Part shown: in pieces, positions 391 to 21,023 of the stretch | Numbering within the stretch: the stretch's first letter is position 1 | How the letters are laid out: the number at the start of each line of letters is the position of its first letter | The notes under the pieces: generated by a model | Database searches by the model: none | The model's input: only the letters and a program-made list of their open reading frames with translations | What the model was told of the DNA's origin: nothing | Translations under genes and position numbers: made by a program | Virus record (IMG/VR): IMGVR_UViG_3300027736_000231 | Coordinates: 1-25,277 of that record | Origin: a virus | Strand: one strand, 5' to 3' | DNA length: 25,277 nucleotides

Positions 391-990
391 ATGCCTGAAA
401 CTAATAAGACTGTTAAGAAACCTATAGGGGCCGCCAAGGCTCAGGGTGCAGTTGCCCCCAAAAAATCCCCCAAGCCCAAAACAAAGCCTAAAATAGGCAG
501 ACCATCTAACTATGACCCTAAGATAGCAAGAATCATATGTGAACAACTAAGTGAGGGAATACCACTTAGACAGATATGTAGAGAGAACGAAGGCTTCCCT
601 GCATGGAGGACTGTTTACGATTGGATGGGTCGCAATCCTGATCTTTCCGCATCCATCGCGCGAGCCAGAGATATTGGTTACGACGCAATTGCTGAAGAGT
701 GTTTGCACATTGCGGACAATCAGACAATAACGGAACGGATCACGGAAACGGAAGACCCCAAGACTAAGGCAATATTGCGGTCGGTGATTAGGTCGGACGA
801 TGTTAATGCTCGCCGCCTACAGGTTGAGACCCGATTGAAGTTGCTGGCAAAGTTCCATCCCACCAAGTATGGGGATAGGGTGGCCATTGAGGGGGTTGAG
901 GGAGGTGCAGCCATCAAGACTGAGGATACTGGGGCGAATAAGTTCCTCGAGATTATTAAGAACATGGAGATGACTAAGCGTGCTGGCTGA
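391..990 (+). CDS. terS: Terminase small subunit
   Basis: This 199-residue protein matches phage small terminase subunits, which recognise the packaging site and present the genome to the large subunit. A lysine/proline-rich N-terminal tail (residues 1-35) precedes GRPSNYDP and a helix-turn-helix region at about 44-85 (EGIPLRQIC, WRTVYDWM). A helical oligomerisation region follows (SASIARARDIGYDAIAEEC, about 87-150), with the family-like ending LKLLAKFHPTKYGDR at 149-163. The ORF stays open back to a TTG at 349, but that has no ribosome binding site. The ATG at 391 has purine-rich GGGG (377-380) and AAGGG (384-388) upstream and removes an atypical leader, so I chose it. It overlaps terL by 11 bases, as expected for a terminase operon. 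The leader RNA and AGCGAA repeats lie just upstream. Confidence 0.92.
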   Translation: MPETNKTVKKPIGAAKAQGAVAPKKSPKPKTKPKIGRPSNYDPKIARIICEQLSEGIPLRQICRENEGFPAWRTVYDWMGRNPDLSASIARARDIGYDAIAEECLHIADNQTITERITETEDPKTKAILRSVIRSDDVNARRLQVETRLKLLAKFHPTKYGDRVAIEGVEGGAAIKTEDTGANKFLEIIKNMEMTKRAG

Positions 991-2395
991 GTTGCTTGAA
1001 GACCCAGCGGTCGCGGCAGAGTTTGACGCGCAGGCAGAGCATGACCGGATTGCCCAAATAGCCCATGCAAAATGGATAGCAAGCGCCCATAAGTACCAGA
1101 TACCCCCGCCATTGGAATATGACTACACTGTCTGGATGATGCTCGCGGGTAGGGGCGCGGGGAAGACGCGCTCGGCAGCAGAGGCGCTTTGGTGGTGGTG
1201 TTGGACAAACCCCGGTACTCGAGGGCTTGTACTGGCTCCAACCAGTAATGACATCAAGTTCACTTGTTTTGAGGGGCAGTCAGGCTTACTTGCTTGCATT
1301 CCTCAAGAGTTGGTGACCGACTATAACAAACAGGATCACCAGATCAAACTGAGCAATGGCTCTATCATTCGCGGCATTTCTGGTGATTCCTATGAACGGC
1401 TAAGGGGGCCGCAGTTTCATTGGTGCTGGGCAGATGAGTTGGCTGCATTCCAGTATCTGGGGCCTGGGGAGGCATGGGACATGATGATGATGGGTCTGCG
1501 CTTAGGCACTCAGCCTCGAGTGATTGTGACTACTACGCCCAAGCCTAAGGACTTGATCCTTGATCTGGTGGGCAGAGAGGGTGGTGATGTGGTCATTGAC
1601 CGAGCCAGTACCTATGAGAATAAGGCTAACCTTGCACCCAACTTCAGCAAGCAATTAGAGCAGTACAAGGGCAGCAAACTCTATCAGCAAGAGGTCATGG
1701 GTGAGATAGTTGACCTTGAGGATGGTAAGGTTGTCAGCCGGGATATGTTCCAGATGTGGCCTGCTGACCGACCATTCCCTAAGTTTGAATACATTGTGCA
1801 GTCCTATGACTGCGCCTATACGGATAAGGAATACAACGATCCTACGGCTATGACTACTTGGGGCGTGTTCAAGCCTATGGATGGCCCCATGTCTGTGCTG
1901 CTGATTGACTGCTGGGCAGAACATCTGACTTTCCCTAACCTCAAGCCTAAGGTCATTGAAGAGTGGCGTGTCTCTTATGGTGAGGGGAGGGATGCCAAGC
2001 GCCCTGACTTAATCCTCGTGGAGGCAAAGGCATCTGGTCTGTCTTTAGTGCAAGAGTTGAGGGCAATGCATCTGCCTGTAAGGGCATGGAATCCCGGCAA
2101 TGCCGATAAGATGACCCGGCTCCAGATTACCGCCTCCATCTTTACGACTGGTCGCGTCTGGCTGCCAGAGTCCTCAGTGCGCAAGGGCTATGTCAAAGAC
2201 TGGTGCGAGGGGTTTTTGAGCCAGATATGCTCATTCCCTGATTCCACCCATGATGACTATGTGGATAGCGCAACTCAGGCTATTCGCTTGCTTAAAGATA
2301 TGGGGTTCCTAGACATAAACCCAGAGCCTCGTTATGATGATGATGATGATTATTTAGATTTAAAACCCAAACGGGTCAACCCTTACGCGGTGTAA
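980..2395 (+). CDS. terL: Terminase large subunit (ATPase/nuclease)
   Basis: This 471-residue packaging motor has both expected domains. The ATPase has Walker A LAGRGAGKTR (55-64), Walker B with WCWADE (D152, E153) and the coupling motif VTTTPKP (183-189). The RNase H-like nuclease shows acidic residues in order: SYDCAY (D277), ILVEAK (E348) and HDDYVDS (D425/D426/D429). The start is GTG at 980, supported by GGAGA at 966-970; the next in-frame methionines lie just before Walker A and would destroy the domain. It cuts concatemeric DNA and translocates it through the portal. The C-terminus carries five consecutive aspartates from a GATGAT tract (about 2336-2350). It overlaps terS and is followed after 3 bases by the giant gene. 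Confidence 0.97.
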   Translation: MLAELLEDPAVAAEFDAQAEHDRIAQIAHAKWIASAHKYQIPPPLEYDYTVWMMLAGRGAGKTRSAAEALWWWCWTNPGTRGLVLAPTSNDIKFTCFEGQSGLLACIPQELVTDYNKQDHQIKLSNGSIIRGISGDSYERLRGPQFHWCWADELAAFQYLGPGEAWDMMMMGLRLGTQPRVIVTTTPKPKDLILDLVGREGGDVVIDRASTYENKANLAPNFSKQLEQYKGSKLYQQEVMGEIVDLEDGKVVSRDMFQMWPADRPFPKFEYIVQSYDCAYTDKEYNDPTAMTTWGVFKPMDGPMSVLLIDCWAEHLTFPNLKPKVIEEWRVSYGEGRDAKRPDLILVEAKASGLSLVQELRAMHLPVRAWNPGNADKMTRLQITASIFTTGRVWLPESSVRKGYVKDWCEGFLSQICSFPDSTHDDYVDSATQAIRLLKDMGFLDINPEPRYDDDDDYLDLKPKRVNPYAV

Positions 2396-2398
2396 AAC

Positions 2399-5300
2399 AT
2401 GGGCGCACTTAATATTCTGGCTAAGACGGCCAAGGCAGCAAATGAAGCGGACCGGGCTTTGCCCATGCGTTTGGCTCGTGCTACCCCTAAGACCAAGGCA
2501 GAGATAGATGCTTTGGCTACTCGCGTGTCTAAGCAGATGCTAGGTGAACACGTGGAGTCTGGCAAGGCAGGGGATACCAAGAACTTGGCTGGGCGCTCGC
2601 GTCTTGAGAATGAGCGCGTCAAGGGATTGGACTATGAGGTTGTGCCGACAGGTAAAGCAAGGCAGTCCAATGTGTACCAAGCCCGCAAGGGTGATGTCAA
2701 TGTGGCTATCCCGGGTGACCAGACCATCTCTGACTCAGTCTTGAAGCGAGTTGGGGATATTGAGGGGATTGAATCCATCCAAGAGGGTGGGGCAAGATAT
2801 GGCTTGGGCAAGACGCGTGGCAAGAACCCTCTCTTCTGGGCATCCAATGAGGGGCCGGCACAACAGGCTCAGAACAAGTTTACGGATGTGGCTGAGTTCT
2901 ATGAGCCAGAGCGAGTGGTTGGGCAGCACATGGCTATGGGGCCAATCTCCAATAACTTTGCCATGCACTTTGCTGATGCCAACCTAAGGGCGATGGACTT
3001 CACCAAGATTAAGCCTAAAGATATGCAGACCTTTGATGCTTTGATTGCTCAAGGTTATCCAAAGACAAACCCAAAGACAGGGGTAACGGAGCAGATTTCT
3101 TTTTCTAATTGGCCCGGCATTGCTGATCGAGATGCAGCCATGGAGGCAATGAGGGCTGACCCTGAAATGAGGAAGTGGTTCAACAACCGAATGAAGATAC
3201 CTAAGGTGACTCAACCCTTGGGATTGCCTAATGGCTTGGACATCCAATGGGCTATTACTGAGCCACAGTTGCGCAACATGGAGGTCAATCTGACTGGCTT
3301 ATCAGCCGGGGAGATGGTTCCGGGTGCAAAGTTGACCGACACCGCGGGTCACAATACCTATGAGAAAGGGATTCGTGGCAAGGCTTTAGGTCACCAAGAG
3401 GTCTTGACCCCATTCACCCTATCCTATCCTGATGCAGCACAGCACATTGCCTCAACTCAGCGCCCCCAAGACTTTACTGGGACTATCCAAAAGGTCTTCC
3501 CCCATCAGTTGGTGGATGACCAGTGGCTTGATGAAGTTGCCAAGTACCGCGAGTTGATTAAGAAATACACCGGGCAAAAGTCTGGCGGTGAGATACATAT
3601 GTCCAACTTTGAGAAAAGACTCAGAGGGATTAAGAATGAGGATGATAAGGAATCCATCCGCAAGTTAATGGCTTTGATGGCTGGCATGATTAAGGGTCAG
3701 CCTACTGATGTAGCCTCACAGACCTTTAAGGGTAGGGACTACAAGACTAAGAAGAATCCCAATCCGACAACCCCATCCATGCCCTCATTCGCATTCAAGG
3801 GCAAGCACTTTGCTGATGGCGGCGATGTGGATGACTCCCCAATCAAGTTCAACCCCTTTGTCAACAAGCAGCACATGAATGGAGCAGACATCTCCAATGC
3901 TGGGCTGATGGCTAATGCTGACCTCAAAGATGCGGGCAGACTGAGTGCGGGTGTCAACCTTACTGCCATCGAGAAAGACCGAGAGCGCCGCCAAATGGAG
4001 GCTCTGATGGCTAACTACTCCAACAACATTGGGGATGTGGGCATCAATGCGGGTGTGGTCAAGCCTTTGGACAAGTTCATTCCCGCCAATCTGTATCAGA
4101 CCAACTTGGTTGGCTCTGTCCCTGTTGGTGAGGGCAGACTTAGCGCTGGGATGCATGGCACACACATGGATGGTCAGCATAAGGTGACTGGTAATTCCCT
4201 TGGGTACAATGCGCCCTTGGGTGGTGGTCGCTTAAATGTGAACATGATGAAGCCCAAAGAGGGCAAGCCTATGTTTGGCGCTCAATGGCAACGCTCATTT
4301 GCAGAAGGTGGTGCAACCGACTCGCAACCGACTCGGTTTCGTTTGCCTAAGTTCGGTCGTGGTGGTGGCACAAAGACAAGTAAAGACCGCCCATTCTATG
4401 AGCCGTTTACTCAAGGTCTTGGCCCCATGCTCTATGGTGCAGCAAGAGGAACTGCCGCGGGAATTGCTGGCGCACCCGGTGACATTGAGGAATTGGGTCG
4501 CATGGGCATTAATTATGCAGGTGAACTTGCAGGTAAGCCTAACTTAGTAGAAGAAGAGGCGGCTCTGCCAACTTCTGAGCGCGTGCTAAAGAAGATACCA
4601 TCCCTCAAGGATTTGGGAGCGGGCAAGGAGGCTCAACACTCTGAGGATGTAGCCTCTAAGTTGGGTATGTATGGCGTCTCCCAGATAGTCGCGCCCAAGG
4701 CTGGGTCAACTGTAGCCAAGGGAATAAAGACTGTGGGCAAAGAACTCGGTGAGACCGCAGGGCAGAAGATTGCCATGGGTCAACCCCTTGTACCCGGCAT
4801 TCCTAAGTCTCTGACTAACCCTCCTGTGATGAACATCATCAAGCCAGAGGGTGGTAATTGGAAAGATAAATCTATTACTAATTTTGGGCAGAACTTAAAA
4901 GATAGCAACTCCCCTCGCCATATGGCAAGCGTTCGTGGTAATCCCAAAAAAGTTTATGAAGACACTATCAACAAGATGGATACTGTAATTGAGCGCATGA
5001 AAGAGGCGGGTCAATGGAATCCTGAGACTGAGCAGGCTTATGCCAATTTGCGTAAGCAAGCAGAGAACACCTATGCCATCGATACATGGGTTGACTCTAA
5101 CCTAACCAACTATGTCAAGAAACAAATGGGGACTGAAAAAGACCCTGTCCGACTCTTGGCTGACCAAGGCATTTCCCAGTTTGCTGGTGAGGGTGCAATG
5201 CGTGATGCCCTCAATTGGAGTTATCAACAAGCGGCAGATGCAAGGAAAGCCCGCGCAAAGTTTGGAATGCCAGAAAACCAAATGTCTACAACTAGAATGG

Positions 5301-7423
5301 GTACATTTTGGGAAACTGCAACTGATGATTTAATTGGTGGAAATTCAAAGTTGCTCAAAGATTACAAGACTGAGAAGAGACTAAAAGACAATCCTTGGAT
5401 GGCTAATGCACCGGGTGACACTCCAATTTATGGCATTCCTCCTCATGGTTCTTATGAAGATTATGGCTCTTCTCTTGGCTTTGACCATATTCTTGATGTT
5501 TTGAAAGAAGACTTGGCGACTGGCCGCATCCGTCCAGACCAACTTAACAAAGTGTCAATGAAACAAGCGGTTGAGCGCACCCATCAATACAACCAAGAAC
5601 TTGCTAAAAAAGCAGAAGAGGCTAAAGCAAAAAGGGCTGAAGGATTAACTGTTTTTAAAGAATACCCGGAGGGTTATAAATGGGTTCAGTTAGATAAGCC
5701 CGGTCAGTTTACGGCTGAGTCAGATGCCATGGGTCATTCTGTTCGAGGATATGAGCCGCCAAAAGGACATCCTGAATGGTCATTTGAGTCAGGTAATGCT
5801 GGTAGCCCTGATTATGGTTTAGGTGGTTATGAGGCTATTAAAAGGGGTGATGCCAAGGTTTATTCTTTAGTAGACCCTGAGGGTAAGCCACATACTACTA
5901 TTGAGGTTGGCTCTGGCTATGATGCGCCAGCATGGTATCAAAAAAACAAAAAATTATTTGATAGTGATATGCCATTGACTAATAAATCTGATGAAGAATC
6001 TTTGCATGATACTGTAGGTCAGATGGTAAGTTCTTTCAATGAACTATCTGATAGTCCTGCTGCTTATGTTAAATCAATCAGTAAAATTTTGGATGATGCT
6101 GGCATACCATATATACCTGCAGAGCGCTCAAAACCTACCATCCATCAAATTAAGGGTAAACAAAACCGCTCCCCAAATCCTGAGTATTTGCCCTATGTGC
6201 AAGACTTTGTAAGGTCTAGTGAGTGGGATGAGATTGGTGACTTGAGAAATACAGGCTTGAAGACTCTTGATCAAGCATTCCCCAACTATGCGGATGCCAA
6301 GCGTTATAGCAGAACCAATCCTGACACCCGCTATGTGACTCAAGCAGATATTGATGCTTATCACAAACAAGTCAATGAAGAATTGCTCAATGAGTATTCC
6401 AAGTACCGACTCAAGCCAGACCCTGAGTCTAAGAACACCCTTGGCCGCAATGACTTGATGACCATCAGAGAGTTGGCTGAGTTGGAATTTCCCGGTGATT
6501 TGCAAAAGCAAGCCAACATGATCCGTGGTGCAATGCAAGGCACTACTGAGCCGGGTGCTTATAGTGGCTCAATCTTCCCTCCCCTTGAGGAGAAAAAAGG
6601 TGGGGCAATATCTGCCCCTAAATTTAGCCTAAAGATGGGCGTGGGAGGATTGCTCAAGGGTGCTGCTAAAAGCATGAAAGGGCTGCAAAAGGTATTGCCC
6701 CAAGCAGAACGTGAGGCTAACCTTCAAAAGTTTTTAGAGAAAAGTAAAGTTAAAGAAAAAATGTACCGTGGTGCAACACCACATTTTCAAAAAGAAGGCG
6801 ACCCAATCTTTGTTTCGCCAAATTTGGACTTTGCTGAAAGTTTTCCTGTTGGAAGTAAGAGTCCCACAATTGCGGCTGAGAAGAATCAGACTTTATATCC
6901 ATTACATATTAATGCAACTAATCCATTTGATTATGATGACATCAATCAAATTGAAAAAGTAATACAACAAATTTCTAAATCAGACCCTGATGAGGCTGAA
7001 AAAATAAAAAACGAATTTGATTATTATTTAAAAATGGCAAGATTTGGAAATCAAACAGGTAATTGGGGATTAATTGAGAATCCAGTTGTTCAAGATGCCA
7101 TAAAAAAATTAGGGCATGATAGTTTTTATGTTAATGAAGAAGGTATAAAAAACATTGGGTTATATGACCCATCACAAGTTAAGTCAGCCATAGGCAATCG
7201 TGGAACATATGACATCAATGACCCAGACATCAATAAAGCCATAGGTGGTGCGGTGCAAAGCCTAGAGTCTAAATTACCTAAATTGCTAAAAACCGACTAC
7301 AAGTCTATTGACAAACTTATGACTGAGATATCAAAAAAACATAAAACTGCATCAAAAAAATTGCATGATGAATTTGTTACAAAGCACCACATGACACCAG
7401 ACACTTGGATTAAAAGGAAATAG
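2399..7423 (+). CDS. Giant polyvalent-type protein with PcfJ-like and ART-PolyVal-like domains
   Basis: This 1674-residue protein lies between terL and portal. Residues 1-440 are an unrecognised globular part. Residues 510-636 contain alternating strands with repeated GRLSAG/GRLNVN motifs, then a glycine/alanine-rich hydrophobic stretch (about 670-710, GAARGTAAGIAGAPGDIE) like modules I associate with large phage proteins. Residues 1083-1172 resemble PcfJ-type proteins (MGHSVRGY, YSLVDPEGKPHTTIEV). Residues 1453-1611 look like an ADP-ribosyltransferase of polyvalent proteins: YRG at 1456, YPLHINATNPFD at 1500 and the hallmark end DPSQVKSAIGNRGTYD. Short GG motifs sit between modules (FADGGD 471, FAEGGA 634, KKGGAI 1399, AIGGAV 1614). 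Translation probably follows termination-reinitiation from terL, since the Shine-Dalgarno is weak. The role is inferred: polyvalent proteins are thought to travel with injected DNA and act on the host. The ART end carries D1590 where many relatives have E, so activity is uncertain. Confidence 0.8.
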   Translation: MGALNILAKTAKAANEADRALPMRLARATPKTKAEIDALATRVSKQMLGEHVESGKAGDTKNLAGRSRLENERVKGLDYEVVPTGKARQSNVYQARKGDVNVAIPGDQTISDSVLKRVGDIEGIESIQEGGARYGLGKTRGKNPLFWASNEGPAQQAQNKFTDVAEFYEPERVVGQHMAMGPISNNFAMHFADANLRAMDFTKIKPKDMQTFDALIAQGYPKTNPKTGVTEQISFSNWPGIADRDAAMEAMRADPEMRKWFNNRMKIPKVTQPLGLPNGLDIQWAITEPQLRNMEVNLTGLSAGEMVPGAKLTDTAGHNTYEKGIRGKALGHQEVLTPFTLSYPDAAQHIASTQRPQDFTGTIQKVFPHQLVDDQWLDEVAKYRELIKKYTGQKSGGEIHMSNFEKRLRGIKNEDDKESIRKLMALMAGMIKGQPTDVASQTFKGRDYKTKKNPNPTTPSMPSFAFKGKHFADGGDVDDSPIKFNPFVNKQHMNGADISNAGLMANADLKDAGRLSAGVNLTAIEKDRERRQMEALMANYSNNIGDVGINAGVVKPLDKFIPANLYQTNLVGSVPVGEGRLSAGMHGTHMDGQHKVTGNSLGYNAPLGGGRLNVNMMKPKEGKPMFGAQWQRSFAEGGATDSQPTRFRLPKFGRGGGTKTSKDRPFYEPFTQGLGPMLYGAARGTAAGIAGAPGDIEELGRMGINYAGELAGKPNLVEEEAALPTSERVLKKIPSLKDLGAGKEAQHSEDVASKLGMYGVSQIVAPKAGSTVAKGIKTVGKELGETAGQKIAMGQPLVPGIPKSLTNPPVMNIIKPEGGNWKDKSITNFGQNLKDSNSPRHMASVRGNPKKVYEDTINKMDTVIERMKEAGQWNPETEQAYANLRKQAENTYAIDTWVDSNLTNYVKKQMGTEKDPVRLLADQGISQFAGEGAMRDALNWSYQQAADARKARAKFGMPENQMSTTRMGTFWETATDDLIGGNSKLLKDYKTEKRLKDNPWMANAPGDTPIYGIPPHGSYEDYGSSLGFDHILDVLKEDLATGRIRPDQLNKVSMKQAVERTHQYNQELAKKAEEAKAKRAEGLTVFKEYPEGYKWVQLDKPGQFTAESDAMGHSVRGYEPPKGHPEWSFESGNAGSPDYGLGGYEAIKRGDAKVYSLVDPEGKPHTTIEVGSGYDAPAWYQKNKKLFDSDMPLTNKSDEESLHDTVGQMVSSFNELSDSPAAYVKSISKILDDAGIPYIPAERSKPTIHQIKGKQNRSPNPEYLPYVQDFVRSSEWDEIGDLRNTGLKTLDQAFPNYADAKRYSRTNPDTRYVTQADIDAYHKQVNEELLNEYSKYRLKPDPESKNTLGRNDLMTIRELAELEFPGDLQKQANMIRGAMQGTTEPGAYSGSIFPPLEEKKGGAISAPKFSLKMGVGGLLKGAAKSMKGLQKVLPQAEREANLQKFLEKSKVKEKMYRGATPHFQKEGDPIFVSPNLDFAESFPVGSKSPTIAAEKNQTLYPLHINATNPFDYDDINQIEKVIQQISKSDPDEAEKIKNEFDYYLKMARFGNQTGNWGLIENPVVQDAIKKLGHDSFYVNEEGIKNIGLYDPSQVKSAIGNRGTYDINDPDINKAIGGAVQSLESKLPKLLKTDYKSIDKLMTEISKKHKTASKKLHDEFVTKHHMTPDTWIKRK
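4314..4338. repeat. Tandem 11-mer with AACCGACTCGGTT palindrome
   Basis: CAACCGACTCG is repeated in tandem at 4314-4324 and 4325-4335, and the second copy runs into the palindrome AACCGACTCGGTT (4326-4338). The palindrome has the same 6-base arms as the leader palindrome at 103-115. It lies in the part of the giant gene coding for a linker just after the FAEGG motif. It may be a binding site embedded in coding DNA or simply a codon coincidence. Confidence 0.4.
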
Positions 7424-7425
7424 AT

Positions 7426-9933
7426 ATGGCTACTGAAATGCCGATAGACCCAGAATTCAACCGATTCCTTGATGGAATCAAAGAAATCCCAGAAGAGGGG
7501 ATTGACATTGATATTGACTTAGAGGATTCAGAAGTAGAAGAATTGCCTGATGGTTCTGCCGTAGTCCAAATGGAGGGCTTTAAAGGCCCCAATGAAGATG
7601 AAGATTTCTATGCCAACTTGGCTGAGACTCTAAACCTCTATGACATTGAGAAGATTGCCAACCGCTACATTGACCTCATTGAGAATGACAAAGAGTCCCG
7701 TGAAAAGCGGGACAAGCAACAAGAAGAGGGCTTAAAACGCACTGGCATGGGTGATGACGCGCCCGGAGGGGCTATGTTCTTTGGTGCATCCAAAGTAGTT
7801 CACCCTGTAATGGCAGAGGCTTGTGTAGACTTTGCCTCAAGAGCCATTAGGGAACTATTCCCACCAGATGGCCCAACCCGCACAAAGATTATTGGCGAAG
7901 TAACTGATGAGAAGACTGAGGTCGCAGAGCGTAAACGCGACTACATAAACTGGCAGTTGACTGAGCAGATTGAAGAGTTTAGGGATGAGCAAGAGCAATT
8001 GTTGACCCAGTTGCCGTTGGGTGGCTCTCAGTTTATGAAAATCTGGTATGACGAAACAAAGCGCAGACCTTGCTCTGAGTTCGTCCCCATTGACAACATC
8101 TTGCTCCCCTATTCAGCGGTAAATTTTTATACTGCTCAAAGGGTTACTGAGGTGCAAACCATCTCTGCTTGGGAGTTGGATCAACGCGTTCAAAGGGGTT
8201 TATACCGAGATACTAATTTTGTCCGCGCCCACTCTGAGCCAGAGCAGACTCATTCTGAGAAAGCCAATGAGAAGATTGAGGGCAAGAAATATCAGGACAA
8301 TGAAGATGGAATGCGTAAGGTCTACCACATCTACACATGGTTAAACCTAGATGATGACACCCGTACAGATGGTGAATCCGCTCCTTACATCTTAATGATT
8401 GATGAGTTAGAGCAAAAAGTCTTGGGGTTATATCGTAACTGGGAAGAGGGTGACATTACCTTAACAAAGTTAGATTGGCTCATTGAATTCAAATTTATCC
8501 CATGGAGGGGTGCATATGCTATCGGTCTTCCGCAACTCATTGGAGGTCTTTCTGCTGCGCTTACGGGCGCTCTTCGTGCCTTGCTCGATACGGCACACAT
8601 TAACAATTCAGCGACGATGCTCAAACTTAAAGGCGCGCGAATTTCAGGTGCAAGTCAACAAATTGAGGTCACGCAGGTTACTGAAGTTGAGAGCGCGCCG
8701 GGTGTAGATGACATCCGTAAGATTGCTATGCCAATGCCATTTAACCCCCCAAGTCAAGTTCTGTTTGAACTCTTGGGATGGTTAACTAATGCCGCCAAAG
8801 GGGTAGTAACCACAGCAGAAGAAAAGATTGCTGATGTAGGTCAGAACACCCCAGTAGGCACAACTCAGGCTCTAATAGAGCAAGGAGCGGCAGTATTCTC
8901 ATCTATCCATGCACGCTTGCATGAGTCCCAACGCCGTGTGCTTGGGATAATTGGTCGTCTGAATCGATGGTATTTGGATGAGCAAAAGCGTGGTGATGTG
9001 GTGGCTGAACTACCAATCAAGCGGGAAGACTTCAAACGCAATAGTGACATCATCCCTGTTTCTGACCCCCATATCTTTTCGGAAACGCAAAGAGTGGCCC
9101 AGATGCAAGCGGTATTGCAGTTATCTACACAATTCCCCGCTATTTTTGACCAAAGGGCGGTAGTGGCTCGGATGCTTAAACAGTTAAAGATACCTAACTC
9201 TAATGAGTTGATACCAAATGCCTCTAAACCCGCGGAGATGAATGCTGCTCAAGAGAATTCAGCCATGGCTTTGGGCAGACCAGCCTTTGCATATCCTCGC
9301 CAAGACCACTTGGCACACATACAGGCTCACTTATCATTTGCCCTAGACCCTAACCTAGGCATGAACAATTTAGTTGCCCCTAAATACATTCCACAGGCTT
9401 TAGAGCATATTAAACAACACATGATGCTCTGGTATACCAACCAAATGCAGACTTATGCTGGTGGTGACACAGGGGTTAGGATTGACAATTATGATAACAA
9501 CAAGTTGGTCAAAGAGATTGATAGGGCAATTGCTATAGCCTCAGACCATGTAAAGATGGATTCCCAAGAGGTATTTTCTGGGGTCATGCCTGCTCTGCAA
9601 CAACTCGGTCAGTTTATGCAACAGTTCAAACCACCCGCACCTCCAATGGATGGTGAGGCACAGGCAGTTCTACAGGCATCTATGGCTGAGACTCAACGCA
9701 GAGCGGCTCAAGACCAAGCATCTAACCAACTTAAACAGGCTGAGATGCAAGCCAAGGCTGCTCGTGAGGACAAGGATTTACAGGCTCGTATAGCCATGAA
9801 TGCTGAAGATAACCTCACAACTGAGCGTATGAAAACTGCGGAACTGACTGTAGATGGTGTCAGACTGCGTAAGGAGCAGGAAGAAACTGCAATTAAATTG
9901 AACCAAACCACCCAAAGTAACTTAGGAGAATGA
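7426..9933 (+). CDS. Portal protein
   Basis: This 835-residue protein fits the long podovirus-type portal that forms the dodecameric DNA gate at one capsid vertex. It begins with an acidic segment (about residues 15-60). The core follows with sequences typical of the family, such as GASKVVHPVMAEACVDFASR and QLPLGGSQFMKIWYD. The C-terminal 83 residues (753-835) are almost entirely polar and helical, with many Q/K/A/E, like the helical barrel of P22-type portals. The length is close to or above that of P22 gp1. The start ATG is preceded by AGGAAA and lies 2 bases after the previous stop. The gene sits between the terminase block and the Hsp10/scaffold/capsid genes, where a portal is expected. 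I cannot assign it to a precise family without a profile search. Confidence 0.88.
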   Translation: MATEMPIDPEFNRFLDGIKEIPEEGIDIDIDLEDSEVEELPDGSAVVQMEGFKGPNEDEDFYANLAETLNLYDIEKIANRYIDLIENDKESREKRDKQQEEGLKRTGMGDDAPGGAMFFGASKVVHPVMAEACVDFASRAIRELFPPDGPTRTKIIGEVTDEKTEVAERKRDYINWQLTEQIEEFRDEQEQLLTQLPLGGSQFMKIWYDETKRRPCSEFVPIDNILLPYSAVNFYTAQRVTEVQTISAWELDQRVQRGLYRDTNFVRAHSEPEQTHSEKANEKIEGKKYQDNEDGMRKVYHIYTWLNLDDDTRTDGESAPYILMIDELEQKVLGLYRNWEEGDITLTKLDWLIEFKFIPWRGAYAIGLPQLIGGLSAALTGALRALLDTAHINNSATMLKLKGARISGASQQIEVTQVTEVESAPGVDDIRKIAMPMPFNPPSQVLFELLGWLTNAAKGVVTTAEEKIADVGQNTPVGTTQALIEQGAAVFSSIHARLHESQRRVLGIIGRLNRWYLDEQKRGDVVAELPIKREDFKRNSDIIPVSDPHIFSETQRVAQMQAVLQLSTQFPAIFDQRAVVARMLKQLKIPNSNELIPNASKPAEMNAAQENSAMALGRPAFAYPRQDHLAHIQAHLSFALDPNLGMNNLVAPKYIPQALEHIKQHMMLWYTNQMQTYAGGDTGVRIDNYDNNKLVKEIDRAIAIASDHVKMDSQEVFSGVMPALQQLGQFMQQFKPPAPPMDGEAQAVLQASMAETQRRAAQDQASNQLKQAEMQAKAAREDKDLQARIAMNAEDNLTTERMKTAELTVDGVRLRKEQEETAIKLNQTTQSNLGE

Positions 9934-10115: not shown

Positions 10116-10297
10116 AGTCAGTATCCGACATTATTTCTGCTGTAAAAGCGGAACAGGCAAGGATAAAGGAATCGTTGGCGCAAGGAAACTTGCCCAACTT
10201 TGAGACTTATCAACGCCTTGTCGGACAGTATCAGGGGTTGGATGCAACTCTTGAAATTATTAACAATCTTTTAAAGGAAGATAACGATGAAAGATAG
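10112..10297 (+). CDS. Small helical phage protein, unknown function
   Basis: This 61-residue protein is predicted from its heptad-like pattern to be mostly helical (SVSDIISAVKAEQARIKESL, then ATLEIINNLLKE). It overlaps the previous gene by 4 bases (ATGA) and the next by 11 bases. GGAG at 10097-10100 is a rather distant ribosome binding site. Small helical proteins of this size often lie between portal and Hsp10/scaffold genes in aquatic podoviruses; they may be minor head components, but nothing here proves that. Confidence 0.65.
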   Translation: MKSVSDIISAVKAEQARIKESLAQGNLPNFETYQRLVGQYQGLDATLEIINNLLKEDNDER

Positions 10298-10709
10298 CAC
10301 GGTAGCGGGTAATGCCGCTGAGATAGCGGAGGCTTTTCCGCTTGTAGACCCCGGTGCGATTCCATTAGGCGCTCGTGTGCTTGTACAAATGCGATTAGCC
10401 AAGAAAAAAATGACTGAATCCGGGATTATTCTGCCTGAAGAAACACGAGATACCGAAAGGGCGCAAAACCCAATTGGTAAGGTAGTGGCTATAGGCCCAT
10501 TGGCGTTCAAGAAACGCGACTCAATGGAGCCATGGGTTGAGGGCAGTTGGTGTGACGTTGGTGATTTCCTCCGTGTACCTAAATGGACTGGCGACCGCTG
10601 GACTGTTCGGCACAAGGAAGATGAACAAGTGGAATTTATGATTATGAATGACCACGAAGTTATCGCTAAAGTTACTGGAAATCCACTTGAGGTGAGGGCA
10701 TTTGTATGA
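10287..10709 (+). CDS. GroES-like co-chaperonin (Hsp10 family)
   Basis: This 140-residue protein has a Cpn10 fold signature from about residue 26: IPLGARVLVQ, a mobile-loop region with ESGIILPEE (44-52), then NPIGKVVAIGP (61-71) and a second strand region VGDFLRVPKW. E. coli GroES is 97 residues; the extra length is about 25 residues at the N-terminus and insertions after residue 72. GIILP at 46-50 corresponds to the GroES GGIVL contact with GroEL. AAGGAAG at 10274-10280 gives a good ribosome binding site 6 bases from the ATG. By analogy with T4 gp31 it would cap host GroEL to fold the capsid protein; the position between portal and scaffold supports this. It overlaps the scaffold gene by ATGA. 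Confidence 0.9.
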   Translation: MKDSTVAGNAAEIAEAFPLVDPGAIPLGARVLVQMRLAKKKMTESGIILPEETRDTERAQNPIGKVVAIGPLAFKKRDSMEPWVEGSWCDVGDFLRVPKWTGDRWTVRHKEDEQVEFMIMNDHEVIAKVTGNPLEVRAFV

Positions 10710-11698
10710 GTACAGACCAAAATGTTGTGGAAAATCAAGAAGTTATTGTCATTCAAGAGGAAAAAGATGGTTCTGCAACAATAGATTTGCCAGAAAGTAT
10801 CCCATCCCCTGATGCAGCCCATGATGAGGACTCTGATGAGGCTGATGAGCGTGCTAGACAGACAGAAATGGCTGTTGGTGGGGCTATTGACCCTGATGCA
10901 GAGGCTATGCGAGAGCAAAAAAGGAGCAAACGACGCGCTCGTAAGGAGTATCACAAGCAAGTTGCCTCTGAAAAAGACCTAAAACTAGACCATTTGACCC
11001 GTCAAAACCAAGAATTGTTGGAAAGACTGTCTGTTTTAGAGAAAAAGAGCCATGGATCAGACATTGCACGCCTAAATAAAGCAATTGAAGACCAAAATTC
11101 ACGAATTTTGTTTGCCAAGCAGAAGATTCAAGAGGCTACGGCTACTGGTAATGGTGAATTGCTTACATCCGCTCAAGAAATGTGGTTTGAGGCTCGGAGG
11201 CAGTCTGAGGCTCTTGAGGCTTTAAAGAAACGCTCGGTTGCCCCACAGCGCCAGCAGACAATCCAGGCCCCAGACCCACAATTGAAGAAGTATGCAGGGG
11301 CATGGATGGAGAATAACCCATGGTATGACCCTAGCGGAAAAGACGCTGATTCAAGAGTTGCTCTAACTATTGACCAAGCGATGGCTGAAGAGGGATGGAA
11401 TCCTAAAGCGTCAGATTATTGGGAAGAATTAGATAATCGCTTGCAAAAGTATTTGCCACACCGTTATACTATGAATACCGATGAAAAACCGATTCGGAAC
11501 TCTAGACCAAGGAATGTTGTGACAAGTTCAGGCCGTGAATCAGTATCAACTACTCGAGGAGGTAACACCTTCACCCTTTCACCTGATCAGGTTAGGGCGA
11601 TGAAAGATGCTGGTATGTGGGATGATGCCGATAAGAGAGCGAAGATGATTCGACGCTATGCCTTAGAAGCCCGACAAAACAATGGATATAGGAGTTAA
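10706..11698 (+). CDS. Capsid scaffolding protein
   Basis: This 330-residue protein has the usual scaffold composition. Its N-terminus is very acidic (residues 1-65), followed by a basic stretch QKRSKRRARK (71-80) and a long coiled coil at about 85-175 (DHLTRQNQELLERLSVLEKK). A C-terminal basic helical segment follows (LSPDQVRAMKDAGMWDD, 291-307, to RAKMIRRYALEAR), as in scaffolds that bind the coat protein through a C-terminal helix. It starts in the stop codon of the Hsp10 gene and precedes the capsid genes, the normal place. It contains VGGAID at 57-62, one of the GG motifs shared with other proteins here. The assignment rests on order and composition, since scaffolds diverge fast. Confidence 0.8.
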   Translation: MSTDQNVVENQEVIVIQEEKDGSATIDLPESIPSPDAAHDEDSDEADERARQTEMAVGGAIDPDAEAMREQKRSKRRARKEYHKQVASEKDLKLDHLTRQNQELLERLSVLEKKSHGSDIARLNKAIEDQNSRILFAKQKIQEATATGNGELLTSAQEMWFEARRQSEALEALKKRSVAPQRQQTIQAPDPQLKKYAGAWMENNPWYDPSGKDADSRVALTIDQAMAEEGWNPKASDYWEELDNRLQKYLPHRYTMNTDEKPIRNSRPRNVVTSSGRESVSTTRGGNTFTLSPDQVRAMKDAGMWDDADKRAKMIRRYALEARQNNGYRS

Positions 11699-13859: not shown

Positions 13860-14837
13860 ATGCCACAATTTTCAGATGACCTATTTCTAGGTTCCGCCAT
13901 TACAGTTCAAGGGTCGGATGCTTACCCTACTGTTTCAACTTTTACTGGTTCAATTGCTACAACCACGTTGACCGTCACCGCCATGCTTTCTGGTGACCCA
14001 ATTGCTGTGGGTATGTTTCTTGACAGTTCAACGTCACTTACCAATGGAACTTACATTACCGCTTTTGGTACGGGTTCTGGCGGTACAGGAACTTACACCG
14101 TAAGCGCTTCACAAACTGTGGCAAGCGCCACAATCATCGGTTCTGGTAATGCTTTGTTGCAAAACCCATCCCCAATGAGCGTAGGTGTAGGCCCATTAGG
14201 TCGTGTTTATATTTGGGACGTTGTACCACAAGCAAAACTAACCACTAATATTGTTGCCGCCGTCATCACAACTGCTACCACGCTCACGCTTGCCGCAGGT
14301 GCTGGTGTTACATCTGCCACGATTACAGGCGGTGGTACAGGCTTGCAACTTGACTGCCCTCGTGCGGTTTCCACAACCACAGGCGCTGGTACTCCAACTT
14401 CCGTCAACATCACTGTCTCTGGCTACGACTACTACGGTCAAGCCATGAGCGAAGTGATTGCAACAGGAACGGTGGCGTCTACTACTGTCAGTGGTAAGAA
14501 AGCCTTCTACCAAATTGCCAGTGTTACTTCTTCTGGCGCAAGCGTGGTAACTGTTGCGGTAGGTACAACCGACATCTTGGGTGCGCCATTGCGTATCACT
14601 GATAGGGGCTACGTCACCCGTGCGGGCTGGGACAATACTTTGGCTGAAGATGCTGGCACCATGACTGTTGCCGCTACATTGACGGCTACCACCACAACTG
14701 GTGATGTGAGGGGTACTTATTTGCCCTCCTCGGCGGCAGATGGTATCAAACGTCTTGTGATGGGAATAGCCCTGCCAGCAATTGCGGCAGGCCCAAATGC
14801 AACTCGTATTGGCGCTCTTGGCGTCACCCAAGCATAA
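13860..14837 (+). CDS. Beta-rich virion structural protein with inserted repeat-type domain
   Basis: This 325-residue protein is rich in threonine, alanine, glycine and valine and looks all-beta. Residues 26-93 form a discrete module ([15 protein letters not shown] through [17 protein letters not shown] and SQTVASATI). That sequence type is common in phage fibre and structural proteins, so it appears to be an interchangeable domain placed inside a head-associated protein. The remainder (GRVYIWDV at 114-121, [17 protein letters not shown]) resembles conserved aquatic phage structural proteins of unknown role. AAGGAG at 13846-13851 lies 8 bases from the ATG. The gene begins a new unit after the capsid terminator. 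A decoration, head-fibre or tail component is possible. Confidence 0.65.
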
Positions 14838-14847
14838 GGAGCGCGAC

Positions 14848-16164
14848 ATGGGACAATTTAAACCAATGGTCAAGATGATGACCACTGAGCCTTCAGTAGA
14901 GTTAAAACTTGCTAAAGGTGGTCATGTAAACATGAAAAAAGGTGGCAAAGCCGAATCTGGTCATAAAAAAATGGCTATGGGTGGTGGTGCTATGGACATG
15001 ATGTCAGGAACTCCCGCTTTATTGGGTCGCCCTGCAGTTAATGCTCCAGTTCGCGCTCCCGGCAAACCATCAATGGCTGCACGCCGTAAAGCGATGATGG
15101 CTAAACCTGCAGTTACTCCATCAGGCCCTCCAATGGCCCCTCCTCCAATGAAAAAAGGTGGTAAGGCTGAGGGTGGTGAGTCCAAAAAGACTCATATGGC
15201 TGAAATGAAAGAGATGAAAGGTCTTGAGAAAGAACTAAAGTCTCACGAAAACAAGCCAGCATCTAAAGGTCACAAAGGCTTGAAAACTGGCGGTGTTGCC
15301 CTTGGCAATGGCGGTGGTTACAAGAAAGGTGGCAAGATTGCTAAGTTTGCTAAAGGCGGTGTGGCTGGTGATGGAATTATTCCTGTATCAGCCTCTGCTC
15401 GTGGTGCGGAGAAGTACAAAAACACGATGATGCATACCGCAGAGTACACAGGCAAGTCTTCAGGTAAGACTGGTGGTGTAAAACTAGGCAATGGTGGTGG
15501 CTACAAAATGGGTGGAAAGATTAAGAAGTATGCAACAGGGGGCATCATTCCTTCTGAGTCTACTTCTGGCTCTTATGCAACGACTGAAATGCATACTGCA
15601 ATTCCTGATAACTCAGGTGGGGGTACAGGTGATGTTCGCTTGGGCAATGCTGGAGGCTTTAAAAAAGGTGGTTCAGCAAAAAAAGCCTACGCGGCGGGGG
15701 GTACTGTTAATTCAGGTCGTCCCGTCGCGATGCCTCAAGGTCGCAAGCCAACTCCCGCGCCAGTAAGAATCAGTCAATTGTCTGGAACTTACAAAAATGG
15801 TGGTCGTGCAACTCCTGCTGAGGCAGTTCTTTTAAAGAACAACCGAACAGAGAATGCATCTGCTATGCGTGATGCCAAAACCGATAGCAATCTGAAGTAT
15901 GGGTCTCCCAAACGGATGAATGAAGGTGGTGGCACAACTGATGTATCTAAGGGTGCTTATGATGCTCACTATGCCCGTGAAAAGGCTGAAAATGAGGCAG
16001 ATCGAAAGATGATGACTGATGCTCTAATGTACTTGCCACGTCAAGCCAAAAAGGCTTTTAATAGCCTTACTGGTCAAGGCGCAGTAACTACAACAGAGCG
16101 TGAAATCAGTAAGACTGTTTCTCCTCCACCAGCCAAAAAGCGAAGTGGTGGTAGGGCTTGTTAA
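14848..16164 (+). CDS. Lysine/glycine-rich GG-repeat protein, unknown function
   Basis: This 438-residue basic, low-complexity protein carries many GG motifs: LAKGGHV, MKKGGKA, FAKGGVA, YATGGII, YAAGGTV and YKNGGRA. Three imperfect repeats occupy residues 147-206, 207-259 and 260-297, each with a (T)G-V-x-LGN-GGGYK core and a K-K-Y/F-A-x-GG motif. A proline/methionine-rich segment lies at 85-101. The ORF is open upstream to 14782, but AAGGAG at 14836-14841 marks the ATG at 14848. It has no transmembrane segment. Similar GG-rich proteins are frequent in uncultivated aquatic phages. DNA packing, virion-internal protein or protease substrate are all possible; none is shown. A strong terminator follows. 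Confidence 0.7.
   Translation: MGQFKPMVKMMTTEPSVELKLAKGGHVNMKKGGKAESGHKKMAMGGGAMDMMSGTPALLGRPAVNAPVRAPGKPSMAARRKAMMAKPAVTPSGPPMAPPPMKKGGKAEGGESKKTHMAEMKEMKGLEKELKSHENKPASKGHKGLKTGGVALGNGGGYKKGGKIAKFAKGGVAGDGIIPVSASARGAEKYKNTMMHTAEYTGKSSGKTGGVKLGNGGGYKMGGKIKKYATGGIIPSESTSGSYATTEMHTAIPDNSGGGTGDVRLGNAGGFKKGGSAKKAYAAGGTVNSGRPVAMPQGRKPTPAPVRISQLSGTYKNGGRATPAEAVLLKNNRTENASAMRDAKTDSNLKYGSPKRMNEGGGTTDVSKGAYDAHYAREKAENEADRKMMTDALMYLPRQAKKAFNSLTGQGAVTTTEREISKTVSPPPAKKRSGGRAC
15286..15738 (+). repeat. Three imperfect repeats in the GG-rich gene
   Basis: Repeat units at about 15286-15465, 15466-15624 and 15625-15738 encode a shared LGN-GG-(Y/F)K-x-GG-K core followed by a K(F/Y)A-x-GG motif, with decreasing unit length and identity. 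The divergence suggests an old internal duplication. Confidence 0.65.
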
Positions 16165-18226: not shown

Positions 18227-18606
18227 TGTCTATATTTTTAGACACTATAGGTCTAACATCTGTTGCTATTGGTATTTGTGACCGATGCAAGATGAAGTAT
18301 CCCTTTGTTGTTTTGGGGCCTGATCCAAACTTTCCCGGCTTGCGAGTCTGTAATACTGGATGTCGTGACCAATTTGACCCATACCGCCTTGCCGCAAGGA
18401 AGACGGAACGTATCAACTTGCGTTTTGCGCGCCCTGATACACCTTTGAATGCTGGAGATAACTACTTGATGACGGGTAGCGAAAACTTTGCTGGTACAAC
18501 CCAGTTTCAAATTTCGACTCAGCAAAACAGTATGCCAAATGATATTGAAGATACTGGCAATAAGGACACACTTGCGCCAAACCCGCCTAACAATACGAGT
18601 ACATAA
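18226..18606 (+). CDS. Small CxxC...CxxxC phage protein, putative zinc binding
   Basis: This 126-residue protein has two cysteine pairs, C18/C21 (ICDRCKMKYPF) and C42/C46 (VCNTGCRDQFDPYR), separated by 20 residues, a layout that could hold one zinc ion. The conserved core GPDPNFPGLRVCNTGC recurs in phages next to adaptor genes. The C-terminal half is polar, proline/asparagine-rich and probably disordered. Both ends overlap neighbours by one base (TAATG), indicating tight translational coupling with the adaptor and the fibre. A tail assembly role is possible, but not shown. Confidence 0.65.
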   Translation: MSIFLDTIGLTSVAIGICDRCKMKYPFVVLGPDPNFPGLRVCNTGCRDQFDPYRLAARKTERINLRFARPDTPLNAGDNYLMTGSENFAGTTQFQISTQQNSMPNDIEDTGNKDTLAPNPPNNTST

Positions 18607-21023
18607 TGTCATCACAAGTAACCATACTACAACTCCCAGCGGCAGGTGCAATAACAGGCACTGAGGCAGTTCCTATCGTTCAAAATGGCGTAACTGTACA
18701 AACGACAACTGCGGCGCTTGCTGGCTCACCTGTTCAGACTTATACATATCTGACAGTCAATCAAACACCTCAATTGGCAAACAGTCGTTATGTTGGCGTG
18801 ACGAATGGTTTAGTAATTACAGATGGCGGTGCGCAAGGACTCTTCAATATCAGCACTACAGGCGCTTTATTGTCTTTAGTAAACTCTGGTACTGGCTTTC
18901 AGGTTAAAACGTCTTCTACGGCTATTACAAATCGTTCTATAGCCGTTTCTGGCGCTGGTATTGCAATTACCAACGGAAGCGGTATATCTGGTAACCCAAC
19001 CATCGCTTTAGATGGTCAAGTATTGAACTTGGCAAATCTTAGTGCAAATGGTTTGATGACCATTTCTTCTGGTGGCGCTATTAGCGCGGTGACTCTTTTA
19101 GGTACAGCCAATCAAGTAACGGTCGCTAACGGTAACGGGGTGAGCGGTGTACCAACAATTTCTTTGGCAGACAATCCTATTTTGGGTGGTACTGCTAGTC
19201 TTACTTTACCTATTGGAGCGACTGGAAGTCGTCCAGCAGTGCCTGTCAATGGCATGATTCGCTATAACTCAACAACAACTCGTTTTGAGGGATACCAAGG
19301 TGGGGCATGGGTTACTCTCGGTTCTGGTGATGGAACAATCTCGGTTGTTACTGGAACGTCTGACCAAATAACGGTTGTTAATGGAACTACGGCTCCAATC
19401 CTTAGTTTGGCTACAAACCCAATAGTGCCGGGTACTGGTAGCATTGCCTTTCCCGCAGGAACAACAGGGCAGAGAAGTCTAGGCCCAATTAATGGAATGT
19501 TCCGCTACAACACGACTACAGCAACCTTTGAGGGTTATGCTAACGGCGCATGGGGTGCAGTTATTACGGGTTCTGGCGTTACCTCGGTGGCTACGGGAAC
19601 TGGCCTCACAGGTGGCCCAATCACCTCTACAGGTACGATTTCAATTGATACGACCGTTGTTGCCACTTTAACTGGTACACAAACGCTAACAAACAAAACA
19701 ATCAGCGGTTCAAGTAATACACTGACTAATATTGCAAATGCAAGTTTAACTAATAGTTCTGTAACCTACAACGGTACTACTGTTGCCTTGGGCGCTTCTG
19801 GAACAATTACAGCAAACACAACAAACGCATTGACCATTGGTACTGGTTTGTCAGGCACATCGTTCAATGGTTCTTCCGCTGTAACAATTGCGATTGATTC
19901 GACTGTTGCTACCTTGACGGGTACGCAGACGTTGACCAACAAGACAATCAGTGGCTCGACCAATACGCTGACAAACATTGCCAATGCAAGCCTTACTAAT
20001 AGTTCTTTGACTATAGGTACTACATCAATTGCTTTAGGCGCATCAAGTCTTACTTTGGGTGGATTGACTACGGTAACCGTAACGCAAAACCCAACTACGG
20101 CATTGGAATTAGCAACTAAACAGTATGTAGACTCTGTGGCTGAAGGGTTAGACCCCAAGGCATCTTGCGTGGCAGCAACGACAACAAACATCACGCTGTC
20201 TGGAACGCAGACGATTGATGGTGTTGCTTTGATTGCGGGAGATAGGTGCTTGGTCAAAGACCAAACTTTGAGCCAAAACAACGGAATTTACTTGGTTGCG
20301 GCAAGTGCATGGACTCGTGCAACGGATATGGACTCGTGGCTAGAAGTGCCGGGGGCGTTTACATTTATCGAACAAGGAACCCTATACGCTGACACTGGTT
20401 GGGTTTGTACTTCCAATGCAGGAGGTACTTTAGGTACAACTCCTATTACTTGGGTGCAATTTGCTGGTGTAGGCTCATATACCGCAGGCACAGGATTGAC
20501 CTTAACGGGTACACAGTTTAGTATTACAAATACTGCTGTGTCTGCTGGTGCTTATGGTTCTGCTACACAAGTAGGGACTTTTACAGTCAATGCGCAGGGT
20601 CAGTTGACGCTTGCTGGCAACACCACGGTAACTCCAGCAGTTGGCTCTATAACTGGCTTGGGTACAGGTGTTGCAACGGCTTTAGGGGTCAATGTTGGCT
20701 CTGCTGGCTCTTTTGTTGTTAATGGTGGCGTGCTTGGAACTCCATCAAGTGGTACGCTGACAAACGCTACGGGCTTGCCAATTAGCACTGGCGTATCTGG
20801 CCTTGGAACTGGAGTTGCTACTGCGCTTGCTGTTAATGTAGGCTCTGCTGGCGCTTTTGTGACGTTCAATGGAGCGTTAGGTACACCAAGCAGTGGAACG
20901 GTGACTAACCTAACAGGCACTGCATCGATTAACATTAACGGAACTGTTGGTGCTACAACACCGACAACAGGAAACTTTACAACAGTCACTGCCACTACAG
21001 GCATTTTTGGAGGAACATTCTAA
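18606..21023 (+). CDS. Large tail fibre protein with internal repeats
   Basis: This 805-residue protein is rich in Thr, Gly, Ser, Asn and Ala, as in beta-helical phage fibres. Its N-terminus (SSQVTILQLPAAGAITGTE, then AVPIVQNGVTVQTT) is a typical phage fibre start. Two NGM(I/F)RYN(S/T)TT..FEGY modules lie at about residues 215-240 and 296-321. A 34-residue module (TLTGTQTLTNKTISGS) occurs twice, at 19659-19760 and 19905-20006. Residues about 505-620 form a familiar fibre domain (ATKQYVDSVAEGLDPKAS, DRCLVKDQT, NNGIYLV, ADTGWVC). Near the C-terminus GLGTGVATAL-VNVGSAG repeats twice. It ends in TATTGIFGGTF without a chaperone domain. The stop overlaps the next fibre gene (TAATG), suggesting the two act together in host binding. 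Confidence 0.8.
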   Translation: MSSQVTILQLPAAGAITGTEAVPIVQNGVTVQTTTAALAGSPVQTYTYLTVNQTPQLANSRYVGVTNGLVITDGGAQGLFNISTTGALLSLVNSGTGFQVKTSSTAITNRSIAVSGAGIAITNGSGISGNPTIALDGQVLNLANLSANGLMTISSGGAISAVTLLGTANQVTVANGNGVSGVPTISLADNPILGGTASLTLPIGATGSRPAVPVNGMIRYNSTTTRFEGYQGGAWVTLGSGDGTISVVTGTSDQITVVNGTTAPILSLATNPIVPGTGSIAFPAGTTGQRSLGPINGMFRYNTTTATFEGYANGAWGAVITGSGVTSVATGTGLTGGPITSTGTISIDTTVVATLTGTQTLTNKTISGSSNTLTNIANASLTNSSVTYNGTTVALGASGTITANTTNALTIGTGLSGTSFNGSSAVTIAIDSTVATLTGTQTLTNKTISGSTNTLTNIANASLTNSSLTIGTTSIALGASSLTLGGLTTVTVTQNPTTALELATKQYVDSVAEGLDPKASCVAATTTNITLSGTQTIDGVALIAGDRCLVKDQTLSQNNGIYLVAASAWTRATDMDSWLEVPGAFTFIEQGTLYADTGWVCTSNAGGTLGTTPITWVQFAGVGSYTAGTGLTLTGTQFSITNTAVSAGAYGSATQVGTFTVNAQGQLTLAGNTTVTPAVGSITGLGTGVATALGVNVGSAGSFVVNGGVLGTPSSGTLTNATGLPISTGVSGLGTGVATALAVNVGSAGAFVTFNGALGTPSSGTVTNLTGTASININGTVGATTPTTGNFTTVTATTGIFGGTF
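19659..20006 (+). repeat. Two 102-base repeats, same protein but different codons
   Basis: Copies at 19659-19760 and 19905-20006 encode 34 residues differing at one position (S or T). They differ at 22 of 102 bases; 19 of 34 codons differ and 18 of those changes are synonymous. Confidence 0.9.
20655..20918 (+). repeat. Two GLGTGVATAL-type fibre repeats
   Basis: Units of about 120 bases at 20655-20774 and 20799-20918 both encode GLGTGVATAL(G/A)VNVGSAG, then a FV...LGTPSSGT...LTNATG-like stretch. The protein is conserved while many codons differ, as in the repeat pair upstream. Confidence 0.8.

What the first reader, a model, noticed from the sequence alone, without database searches (positions are those of the whole stretch)
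2399..7423. A 1674-residue polyvalent protein placed between terL and portal
One ORF longer than any virion gene here joins an unknown N-terminal region, a strand-rich module, a hydrophobic module, a PcfJ-like domain and an ADP-ribosyltransferase-like domain. It sits inside the packaging/portal operon and not among accessory genes. Polyvalent proteins are proposed to be carried with the DNA and to act on the host at entry. Its location suggests loading into the capsid during assembly. This could be an undescribed ejected effector system.
Basis: partly seen in the sequence, partly recalled or inferred. Interest (0 to 1): 0.7.

Follow-up and report, generated by a model that had tools for sequence, protein, structure and literature searches.

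The report
Swappable phage entry protein with barrel
This giant phage protein looks like mix-and-match cargo that is packed inside the virus head and shot into the bacterium, and it carries an unexpected module shaped like a bacterial outer-membrane pore, which would be a new way for a phage to cross the cell envelope if experiments confirm it.

Summary
The ORF is real (ATG 2399, stop 7423, 1674 aa; 3 nt after terL, 2 nt before portal). It belongs to a hypervariable "cargo slot" between terL and portal in uncultured aquatic phages. In 46 distinct portal-seeded relatives, 23 slots hold a gene of at least 450 aa and 14 are essentially empty: optional cargo, not core packaging machinery. Its modules are an unnamed conserved domain (A), a ten-stranded barrel (C), a PcfJ-like domain (B), an ART and a C-terminal tag. 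Relatives carry them in other orders, separated by [FYM]AxGG joints; near-identical L003 lacks exactly C. The barrel's structural matches are outer-membrane beta-barrels (KdgM Z 14.6), and in a second lineage it is fused to a lytic transglycosylase. The protein has no cysteine, like the ejected T7 gp15/gp16, P22 gp7/gp16/gp20 and N4 vRNAP. Best reading: a head-interior, ejected polyvalent protein. Polyvalent proteins are known; the barrel module, the fixed slot and the joints appear undescribed. Presence in virions, membrane insertion and enzyme activity are untested; this copy's ART has Arg where 16 of 17 aligned copies have His.

The parts
980..2395 (+). terminase large subunit, upstream border of the slot
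   Evidence: Pfam Terminase_6N E 3.6e-19, PHROG terL
2399..7423 (+). 1674 aa polyvalent slot protein, no cysteine
2399..3598 (+). module A (res 1-400), conserved unnamed alpha/beta domain, permuted in relatives
3809..3823 (+). joint motif FADGG (res 471-475), left border of module C
3845..4294 (+). module C (res 483-632), ten-stranded outer-membrane-type beta-barrel in the model
4298..4312 (+). joint motif FAEGG (res 634-638), right border of module C; breakpoint of the C-less relative L003
4424..6313 (+). module B (res 676-1305), PcfJ-related; MGHS (res 1111-1114) where classical PcfJ has MGHC
5627..6262 (+). part of B with weak GNAT-like fold (res 1077-1288); QIKGKQN motif at 6146-6166 (res 1250-1256)
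6314..6703 (+). linker with two GG motifs (res 1401-1402, 1416-1417)
6704..7234 (+). ART-PolyVal-like module (res 1436-1612); Arg1457 (6767-6769) replaces the His of YHGT
7226..7420 (+). C-terminal tag (res 1610-1674), phrog_10346, shared with Synechococcus phage proteins annotated tail fiber
7426..9933 (+). portal protein, downstream border of the slot
   Evidence: PHROG portal E 1.2e-27

Best explanation
The protein is a head-interior, ejected polyvalent protein from a swappable cargo slot. Shown here: it is encoded between terL and portal, in a slot that may be empty or hold long proteins (up to 2799 aa) of shuffled modules joined at [FYM]AxGG motifs; one module models as an outer-membrane-type beta-barrel; the chain has no cysteine. 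Inferred: it is made with the packaging proteins, is taken into the procapsid near the portal, and leaves through the tail with or ahead of the DNA. In the envelope the barrel inserts into or engages the outer membrane and helps the rest of the chain, or the DNA, to cross; in a sister lineage the attached SLT domain would cut peptidoglycan at the same step. The B and ART modules then act on host proteins in the cytoplasm, in the manner of T4 Alt. Module A, the commonest uncharacterised part, is the best candidate for the loading or anchoring part. The GG joints are flexible linkers and the borders at which modules are exchanged. Likelihoods: in the head 0.75, ejected 0.65, barrel acting in the outer membrane 0.35.
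For: Position: between terL and portal wherever both flanks are seen. Optional: 23 of 46 portal-seeded slots hold a gene of at least 450 aa, 14 have a gap under 210 nt. Shuffled modules. Exact gain or loss of C and replacement of half of B against L003, whose terL is 99.8% identical. Motif [FYM]AxGG 152 times outside and 14 times inside recognised modules. Barrel model and outer-membrane matches. SLT (PF01464, E about 1e-12) fused to the same barrel in the same slot of a second lineage. No cysteine: 114 of 159 non-redundant slot proteins have none, 0.051% against 1.22% in TerL; T7 gp15/gp16, P22 gp7/gp20/gp16 and N4 vRNAP have none. Distant A-like protein in a cysteine-free run at the ejection-gene position of a P22-like record. 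Precedent: AXL1 gp16, a 1192 aa MuF+VIP2 protein encoded next to the portal gene, found in virions by MS (PMC9206674).
Against: No virion proteomics. Scaffolds are also cysteine-free, so the mark says head interior rather than ejected. In complete relatives the classical ejection-type genes lie elsewhere, at the end of the late operon. The slot is empty in about a third of relatives, so it is not needed for entry in general. Barrel pLDDT is only 62-78 with few informative rows, there is no signal peptide, and pore function is not shown. The ART copy has lost the conserved His.
Confidence: 0.62

Rival explanations
1. It is a structural or assembly protein of the portal vertex or an inner core that stays in the particle; the effector-like modules are relics.
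For: Place between terL and portal, high conservation of module A, absence of cysteine as in scaffolds.
Against: The slot is empty in close and in cultured relatives, and content changes between phages with 97% identical portals; a core assembly part would not behave so.
Confidence: 0.12
2. It is a late protein that acts only inside the producing cell (counter-defence, host take-over, exclusion of competitors) and is not in particles.
For: ART and PcfJ-like modules are typical of conflict proteins; an optional, fast-changing gene.
Against: Strong loss of cysteine not seen in TerL or TerS of the same operon; a barrel and an SLT domain have no obvious use in the cytoplasm; position in the head operon.
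Confidence: 0.15
3. It is a polyprotein cut at the GG joints, by a phage or host protease, into separate parts before packaging or after entry.
For: GG motifs sit at module edges; some slot proteins show HExxH-like stretches (L191, read by eye); phage P1 DdrB is cleaved before encapsidation (PMC5512222).
Against: No maturation protease recognised among the window proteins scanned; the same motif is repeated in another protein, at 14782-16164, which fits a linker or binding motif as well.
Confidence: 0.08
4. Module C is not a membrane barrel but a soluble or fibre-like beta structure that the predictor closes into a barrel.
For: Moderate pLDDT of 62-78, shallow alignment, only moderately hydrophobic strands, no signal peptide, no sequence match to any outer-membrane family.
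Against: All 50 structural rows are membrane beta-barrels, best Z 14.6 at rmsd 2.8 over 145 residues, far above the usual background of 7-8; alternating faces with few charges; last strand ends in Phe; neighbour SLT in the second lineage.
Confidence: 0.4

Closest known systems
Phage polyvalent proteins (Iyer et al. 2017, PMC5512222)
   Same: Several unrelated conflict-type domains in one giant chain, ART-PolyVal domain, late-gene context in portal-terminase phages, strong domain shuffling, lysozyme-type domains in some members.
   Different: Fixed slot between terL and portal, an unnamed common module A, an outer-membrane-type barrel module (the words outer membrane, porin and barrel do not occur in that paper) and [FYM]AxGG joints.
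Podovirus ejection proteins (T7 gp14-16, P22 gp7/gp16/gp20, N4 and DEV vRNAP)
   Same: No cysteine in the large ones; SLT fused in the sister lineage, as lytic transglycosylase activity is known for T7 gp16 (own knowledge); predicted envelope crossing.
   Different: Different gene position, no sequence match in PHROGs, absent from many relatives; the solved DEV outer-membrane pore is helical (PMC10925440), not a beta-barrel.
AXL1 gp16 (MuF + VIP2 ART, PMC9206674) and T4 Alt
   Same: Large ADP-ribosyltransferase-bearing proteins carried in the head; AXL1 gp16 is encoded next to the portal gene.
   Different: No MuF domain here; different ART family; here the gene lies before the portal gene and holds more, exchangeable modules.
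KdgM-type outer-membrane porins
   Same: Fold of module C in the model (Z 14.6, rmsd 2.8 over 145 residues).
   Different: 8% identity, internal module of a phage protein, no signal peptide, ten strands.

Membership tests
Phage polyvalent proteins | two or more distinct conflict-type domains in one chain | tested here: met
   A, C, B (PcfJ-related), ART in one ORF
Phage polyvalent proteins | domain shuffling across relatives | tested here: met
   module orders permuted in over 100 contigs
Phage polyvalent proteins | late/virion gene context in a portal-terminase phage | tested here: met
   between terL and portal
Phage polyvalent proteins | carried in the virion | not testable with these tools
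   needs proteomics; absence of cysteine is indirect support
ART-PolyVal (PF18760) | profile match above curated cut-off | tested here: inconclusive
   25.1 bits against 31.2 for this copy; relatives L016, L017, L137, L143, L093 above it
ART-PolyVal (PF18760) | His of strand 1 in the H-Y-D active site | tested here: not met
   Arg1457 in this copy, His in 16 of 17 aligned copies; H-Y-D from PMC5512222
PcfJ (PF14284) | profile match | tested here: inconclusive
   not for the window copy; 8 of 40 homologues match; L005 and L048 proteins above cut-off
GNAT acetyltransferase fold | fold and acetyl-CoA motif | tested here: inconclusive
   nearly all rows GNAT but Z at most 7.3; QIKGK[QG]N resembles Q/RxxGxG/A; no sequence-profile support
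Outer-membrane beta-barrel proteins | closed antiparallel barrel of even strand number | tested here: met
   ten strands in model, matches to KdgM, FapF, OmpG, OMPLA; model only, pLDDT 62-78
Outer-membrane beta-barrel proteins | N-terminal signal peptide for export | tested here: not met
   module is internal, no such segment before it in the sequence; expected to be delivered another way if ejected
Outer-membrane beta-barrel proteins | insertion into the outer membrane | not testable with these tools
   needs experiment
Podovirus ejection proteins | encoded in the tail/ejection gene cluster | tested here: not met
   slot lies between terL and portal; ejection-type genes are elsewhere in complete relatives
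Podovirus ejection proteins | no or almost no cysteine (regularity found here, not a textbook criterion) | tested here: met
   0 of 1674; yardsticks
MuF head proteins | MuF domain | tested here: not met
   no MuF profile match at E 0.1

The most novel reading that the evidence does not exclude
Some aquatic phages carry, inside the head, a ready-made outer-membrane beta-barrel fused to host-modifying enzymes (and in a sister lineage to a peptidoglycan-cutting domain), and use it to build or gate the outer-membrane passage for DNA or effector delivery: a beta-barrel alternative to the helical pores of known podovirus ejectosomes, mounted on a plug-and-play cargo protein.
Probability: 0.3. Interest if true: 0.85.

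Novelty: new variant of a known kind. Interest (0 to 1): 0.62.

Why it matters
If right, it gives a defined locus from which many combinations of virion-delivered effectors can be read off metagenomes, a simple compositional marker (no cysteine) for head-interior and ejected proteins, and a first candidate for a beta-barrel outer-membrane component delivered by a phage particle. It makes the open question of how short-tailed phages cross the outer membrane testable with one expressible module of about 150 residues.

Tried and rejected
(1) Pfam, PHROGs and solved-structure sequence searches gave no name for module A and no sequence match for C. In the structural search of the joint A+C model the barrel filled the list, so A is not shown to lack a known fold. 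(2) The genome-contig search with A found no relative, so no prophage or host link. (3) A combined B+ART alignment with short ART rows misplaced them and was dropped; the ART part of model 2 is low confidence. (4) A crude beta-amphipathicity scan did not separate barrels from coiled coils and was not used as evidence. (5) Promoter and terminator scans found no more than chance; no Rfam or tRNA match. (6) The barrel has no relative in the annotated phage collection. (7) MuF-type head protein considered and rejected: no MuF match. (8) An ordinary tail or packaging function for the whole chain considered and rejected, because the slot is often empty.

Full report
OBSERVATION. The ORF is exactly as reported: ATG 2399, stop 7423, 1674 aa, 3 nt after the terL stop and 2 nt before the portal start. 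It recurs at 100% in an independent 54 kb contig and is under purifying selection (dN/dS 0.12-0.35 by module). Neighbours are a small terminase, TerL, portal, a GroES-like protein, a scaffold-like protein and a capsid protein (GroES by the annotation of the homologous gene in relatives; 'scaffold-like' is my inference from position and composition).

THE SLOT. Searches with the whole protein and with modules A and B brought in well over a hundred contigs. In 72 distinct cases where both TerL and portal were seen, 69 had at least one gene of 450 aa or more between them. That sample was chosen by the modules, so I repeated it from the portal side: 46 distinct TerL-portal intervals, 23 with a gene of at least 450 aa (up to 2315 aa), 14 with a gap under 210 nt, the rest with small genes. 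Named relatives agree: filled in HTVC027P, 023Pt_psg01, MW202545 and DSL-LC04; empty in Caulobacter phage RW, Roseobacter CRP-902, Planktothrix Pag-Yong1 and Alcaligenes QDWS535. The gene is therefore optional cargo at a fixed place in the packaging operon, not a core packaging or tail part.

MODULES. Module A (res 1-400) is the most frequent uncharacterised piece; it lies first, in the middle or last in different relatives. It is modelled with high confidence (pLDDT mostly above 80 over res 21-390) and its fold matches only unnamed phage proteins in the viral library, apart from one called PcfJ-like (1403 aa) and, weakly, one called NAT_SF (1489 aa). Module B (res 676-1305) is PcfJ-related: 8 of 40 homologues match PF14284, the window copy does not. 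Its structural neighbours are almost all GNAT acetyltransferases, but at Z of 7.3 or less, in the range of chance; the motif QIKGK-x-N, invariant in 40 aligned rows apart from x, resembles the GNAT Q/RxxGxG/A motif. I treat 'GNAT-like' as a lead only. Module D is an ART-PolyVal domain: sub-threshold here, clear in relatives. The His of the YHGT motif, kept in 16 of 17 aligned copies, is Arg here, so this copy may be altered or inactive. The C-terminal tag is shared with proteins annotated as tail fiber in Synechococcus phages.

THE BARREL. Module C (res 483-632) models as ten long antiparallel strands (pLDDT 62-78). Foldseek and VIA-align return membrane beta-barrels: KdgM porin Z 14.6 (rmsd 2.8 over 145 residues), FapF 13.0, OmpG 11.9, OMPLA 11.8, a designed ten-stranded transmembrane barrel 10.4. 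About 70% of residues on one face of the strands are hydrophobic against 10-24% on the other, with few charges (the face was chosen strand by strand, which favours apparent alternation). Searching on from this module led to a second lineage (L182-L195; portal 31-33% identical) in which the same slot holds proteins of 1420-1788 aa. The three scanned carry, in order, a lytic transglycosylase domain (PF01464, E about 1e-12, above its cut-off), a GG joint, the barrel, another GG joint and further modules. A barrel of outer-membrane type beside a peptidoglycan-cutting enzyme in one chain points to envelope passage. In several first-lineage genomes the SLT domain is on a separate gene instead. One relative, L107, carries a GDSL hydrolase in a 2799 aa slot protein.

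JOINTS AND EXCHANGE. The motif [FYM]AxGG occurs 152 times outside recognised modules and 14 times inside in 97 non-redundant slot proteins, over nearly equal numbers of residues (odds ratio 10.7; the sequences are related, so the p-value should not be taken at face value). L003 is a natural experiment: TerL 99.8% and A 99% identical to the window, yet C is missing with breakpoints at the two FA[DE]GG copies, and a middle stretch of B is a diverged allele between near-identical flanks. L046 has a 97% identical portal but A at 83-85%, B at 58%, ART at 31% and no C.

CYSTEINE. The window protein has no cysteine. Over 159 non-redundant slot proteins the rate is 0.051% and 114 have none, against 1.22% in TerL and 0.27% in portal. 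As yardsticks, T7 gp15 and gp16, P22 gp7, gp20 and gp16, N4 vRNAP (3500 aa) and the four DSL-LC04 genes at the ejection position have none, while the terminases do. Scaffolds are also free of cysteine, so the mark is 'head interior', compatible with but not proof of ejection; T7 gp13 and gp14 have a few, and two cysteine-rich proteins at the ejection position of MW202545 are an exception. The distant A-like protein of a P22-like record sits near cysteine-free genes at the ejection-gene position and has none itself.

MECHANISM AND STATUS. Shown: locus, modularity, exchange, composition, predicted folds. Inferred: loading beside the portal, ejection, barrel in the outer membrane, enzymatic action in the cytoplasm. 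A published precedent for a giant ART-bearing protein encoded next to portal and found in virions is AXL1 gp16 (PMC9206674). The solved outer-membrane pore of a podovirus ejectosome, DEV, is helical (PMC10925440), so a barrel would be new. Polyvalent proteins as such are known (PMC5512222), so I file this as a new variant of a known kind.

Noticed in passing
window 14782-16164: 460 aa protein after the capsid genes with 20 GG pairs and four strict [FYM]AxGG motifs, the same motif as the joints of the slot protein; a possible docking partner or repeat protein.
   Followed up: partly
window 10287-10709: Homologue of genes annotated co-chaperonin GroES, kept between portal and capsid genes across the group, including phages with an empty slot.
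   Followed up: no
window 10706-11698: Scaffold-like protein almost free of cysteine across 85 relatives (0.007%), supporting loss of cysteine as a head-interior mark.
   Followed up: partly
window 18606-23911: Two long repeat-rich tail-fibre-like proteins; the second has many repeats of the type NNTAVGYQAGYSNTTG.
   Followed up: no
L180 10833-13994 (MW202545): Two adjacent proteins at the ejection-gene position with 33 and 36 cysteines (8% and 6%), against the near absence of cysteine elsewhere in such genes.
   Followed up: no
L038 2445-5401 (Caulobacter phage RW): Two genes annotated large terminase subunit with a SAM-methyltransferase gene between them, and a tRNA-Val in the otherwise empty slot.
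   Followed up: no
L016 7714-12929: Slot protein with repeated ART-PolyVal domains, several preceded by the same GGSVEQMSAELREKG stretch.
   Followed up: no
L005 7402-11643, L016 and L017: A further shuffled module with a GHEGRHR motif, possibly ParB-like, not present in the window protein.
   Followed up: no
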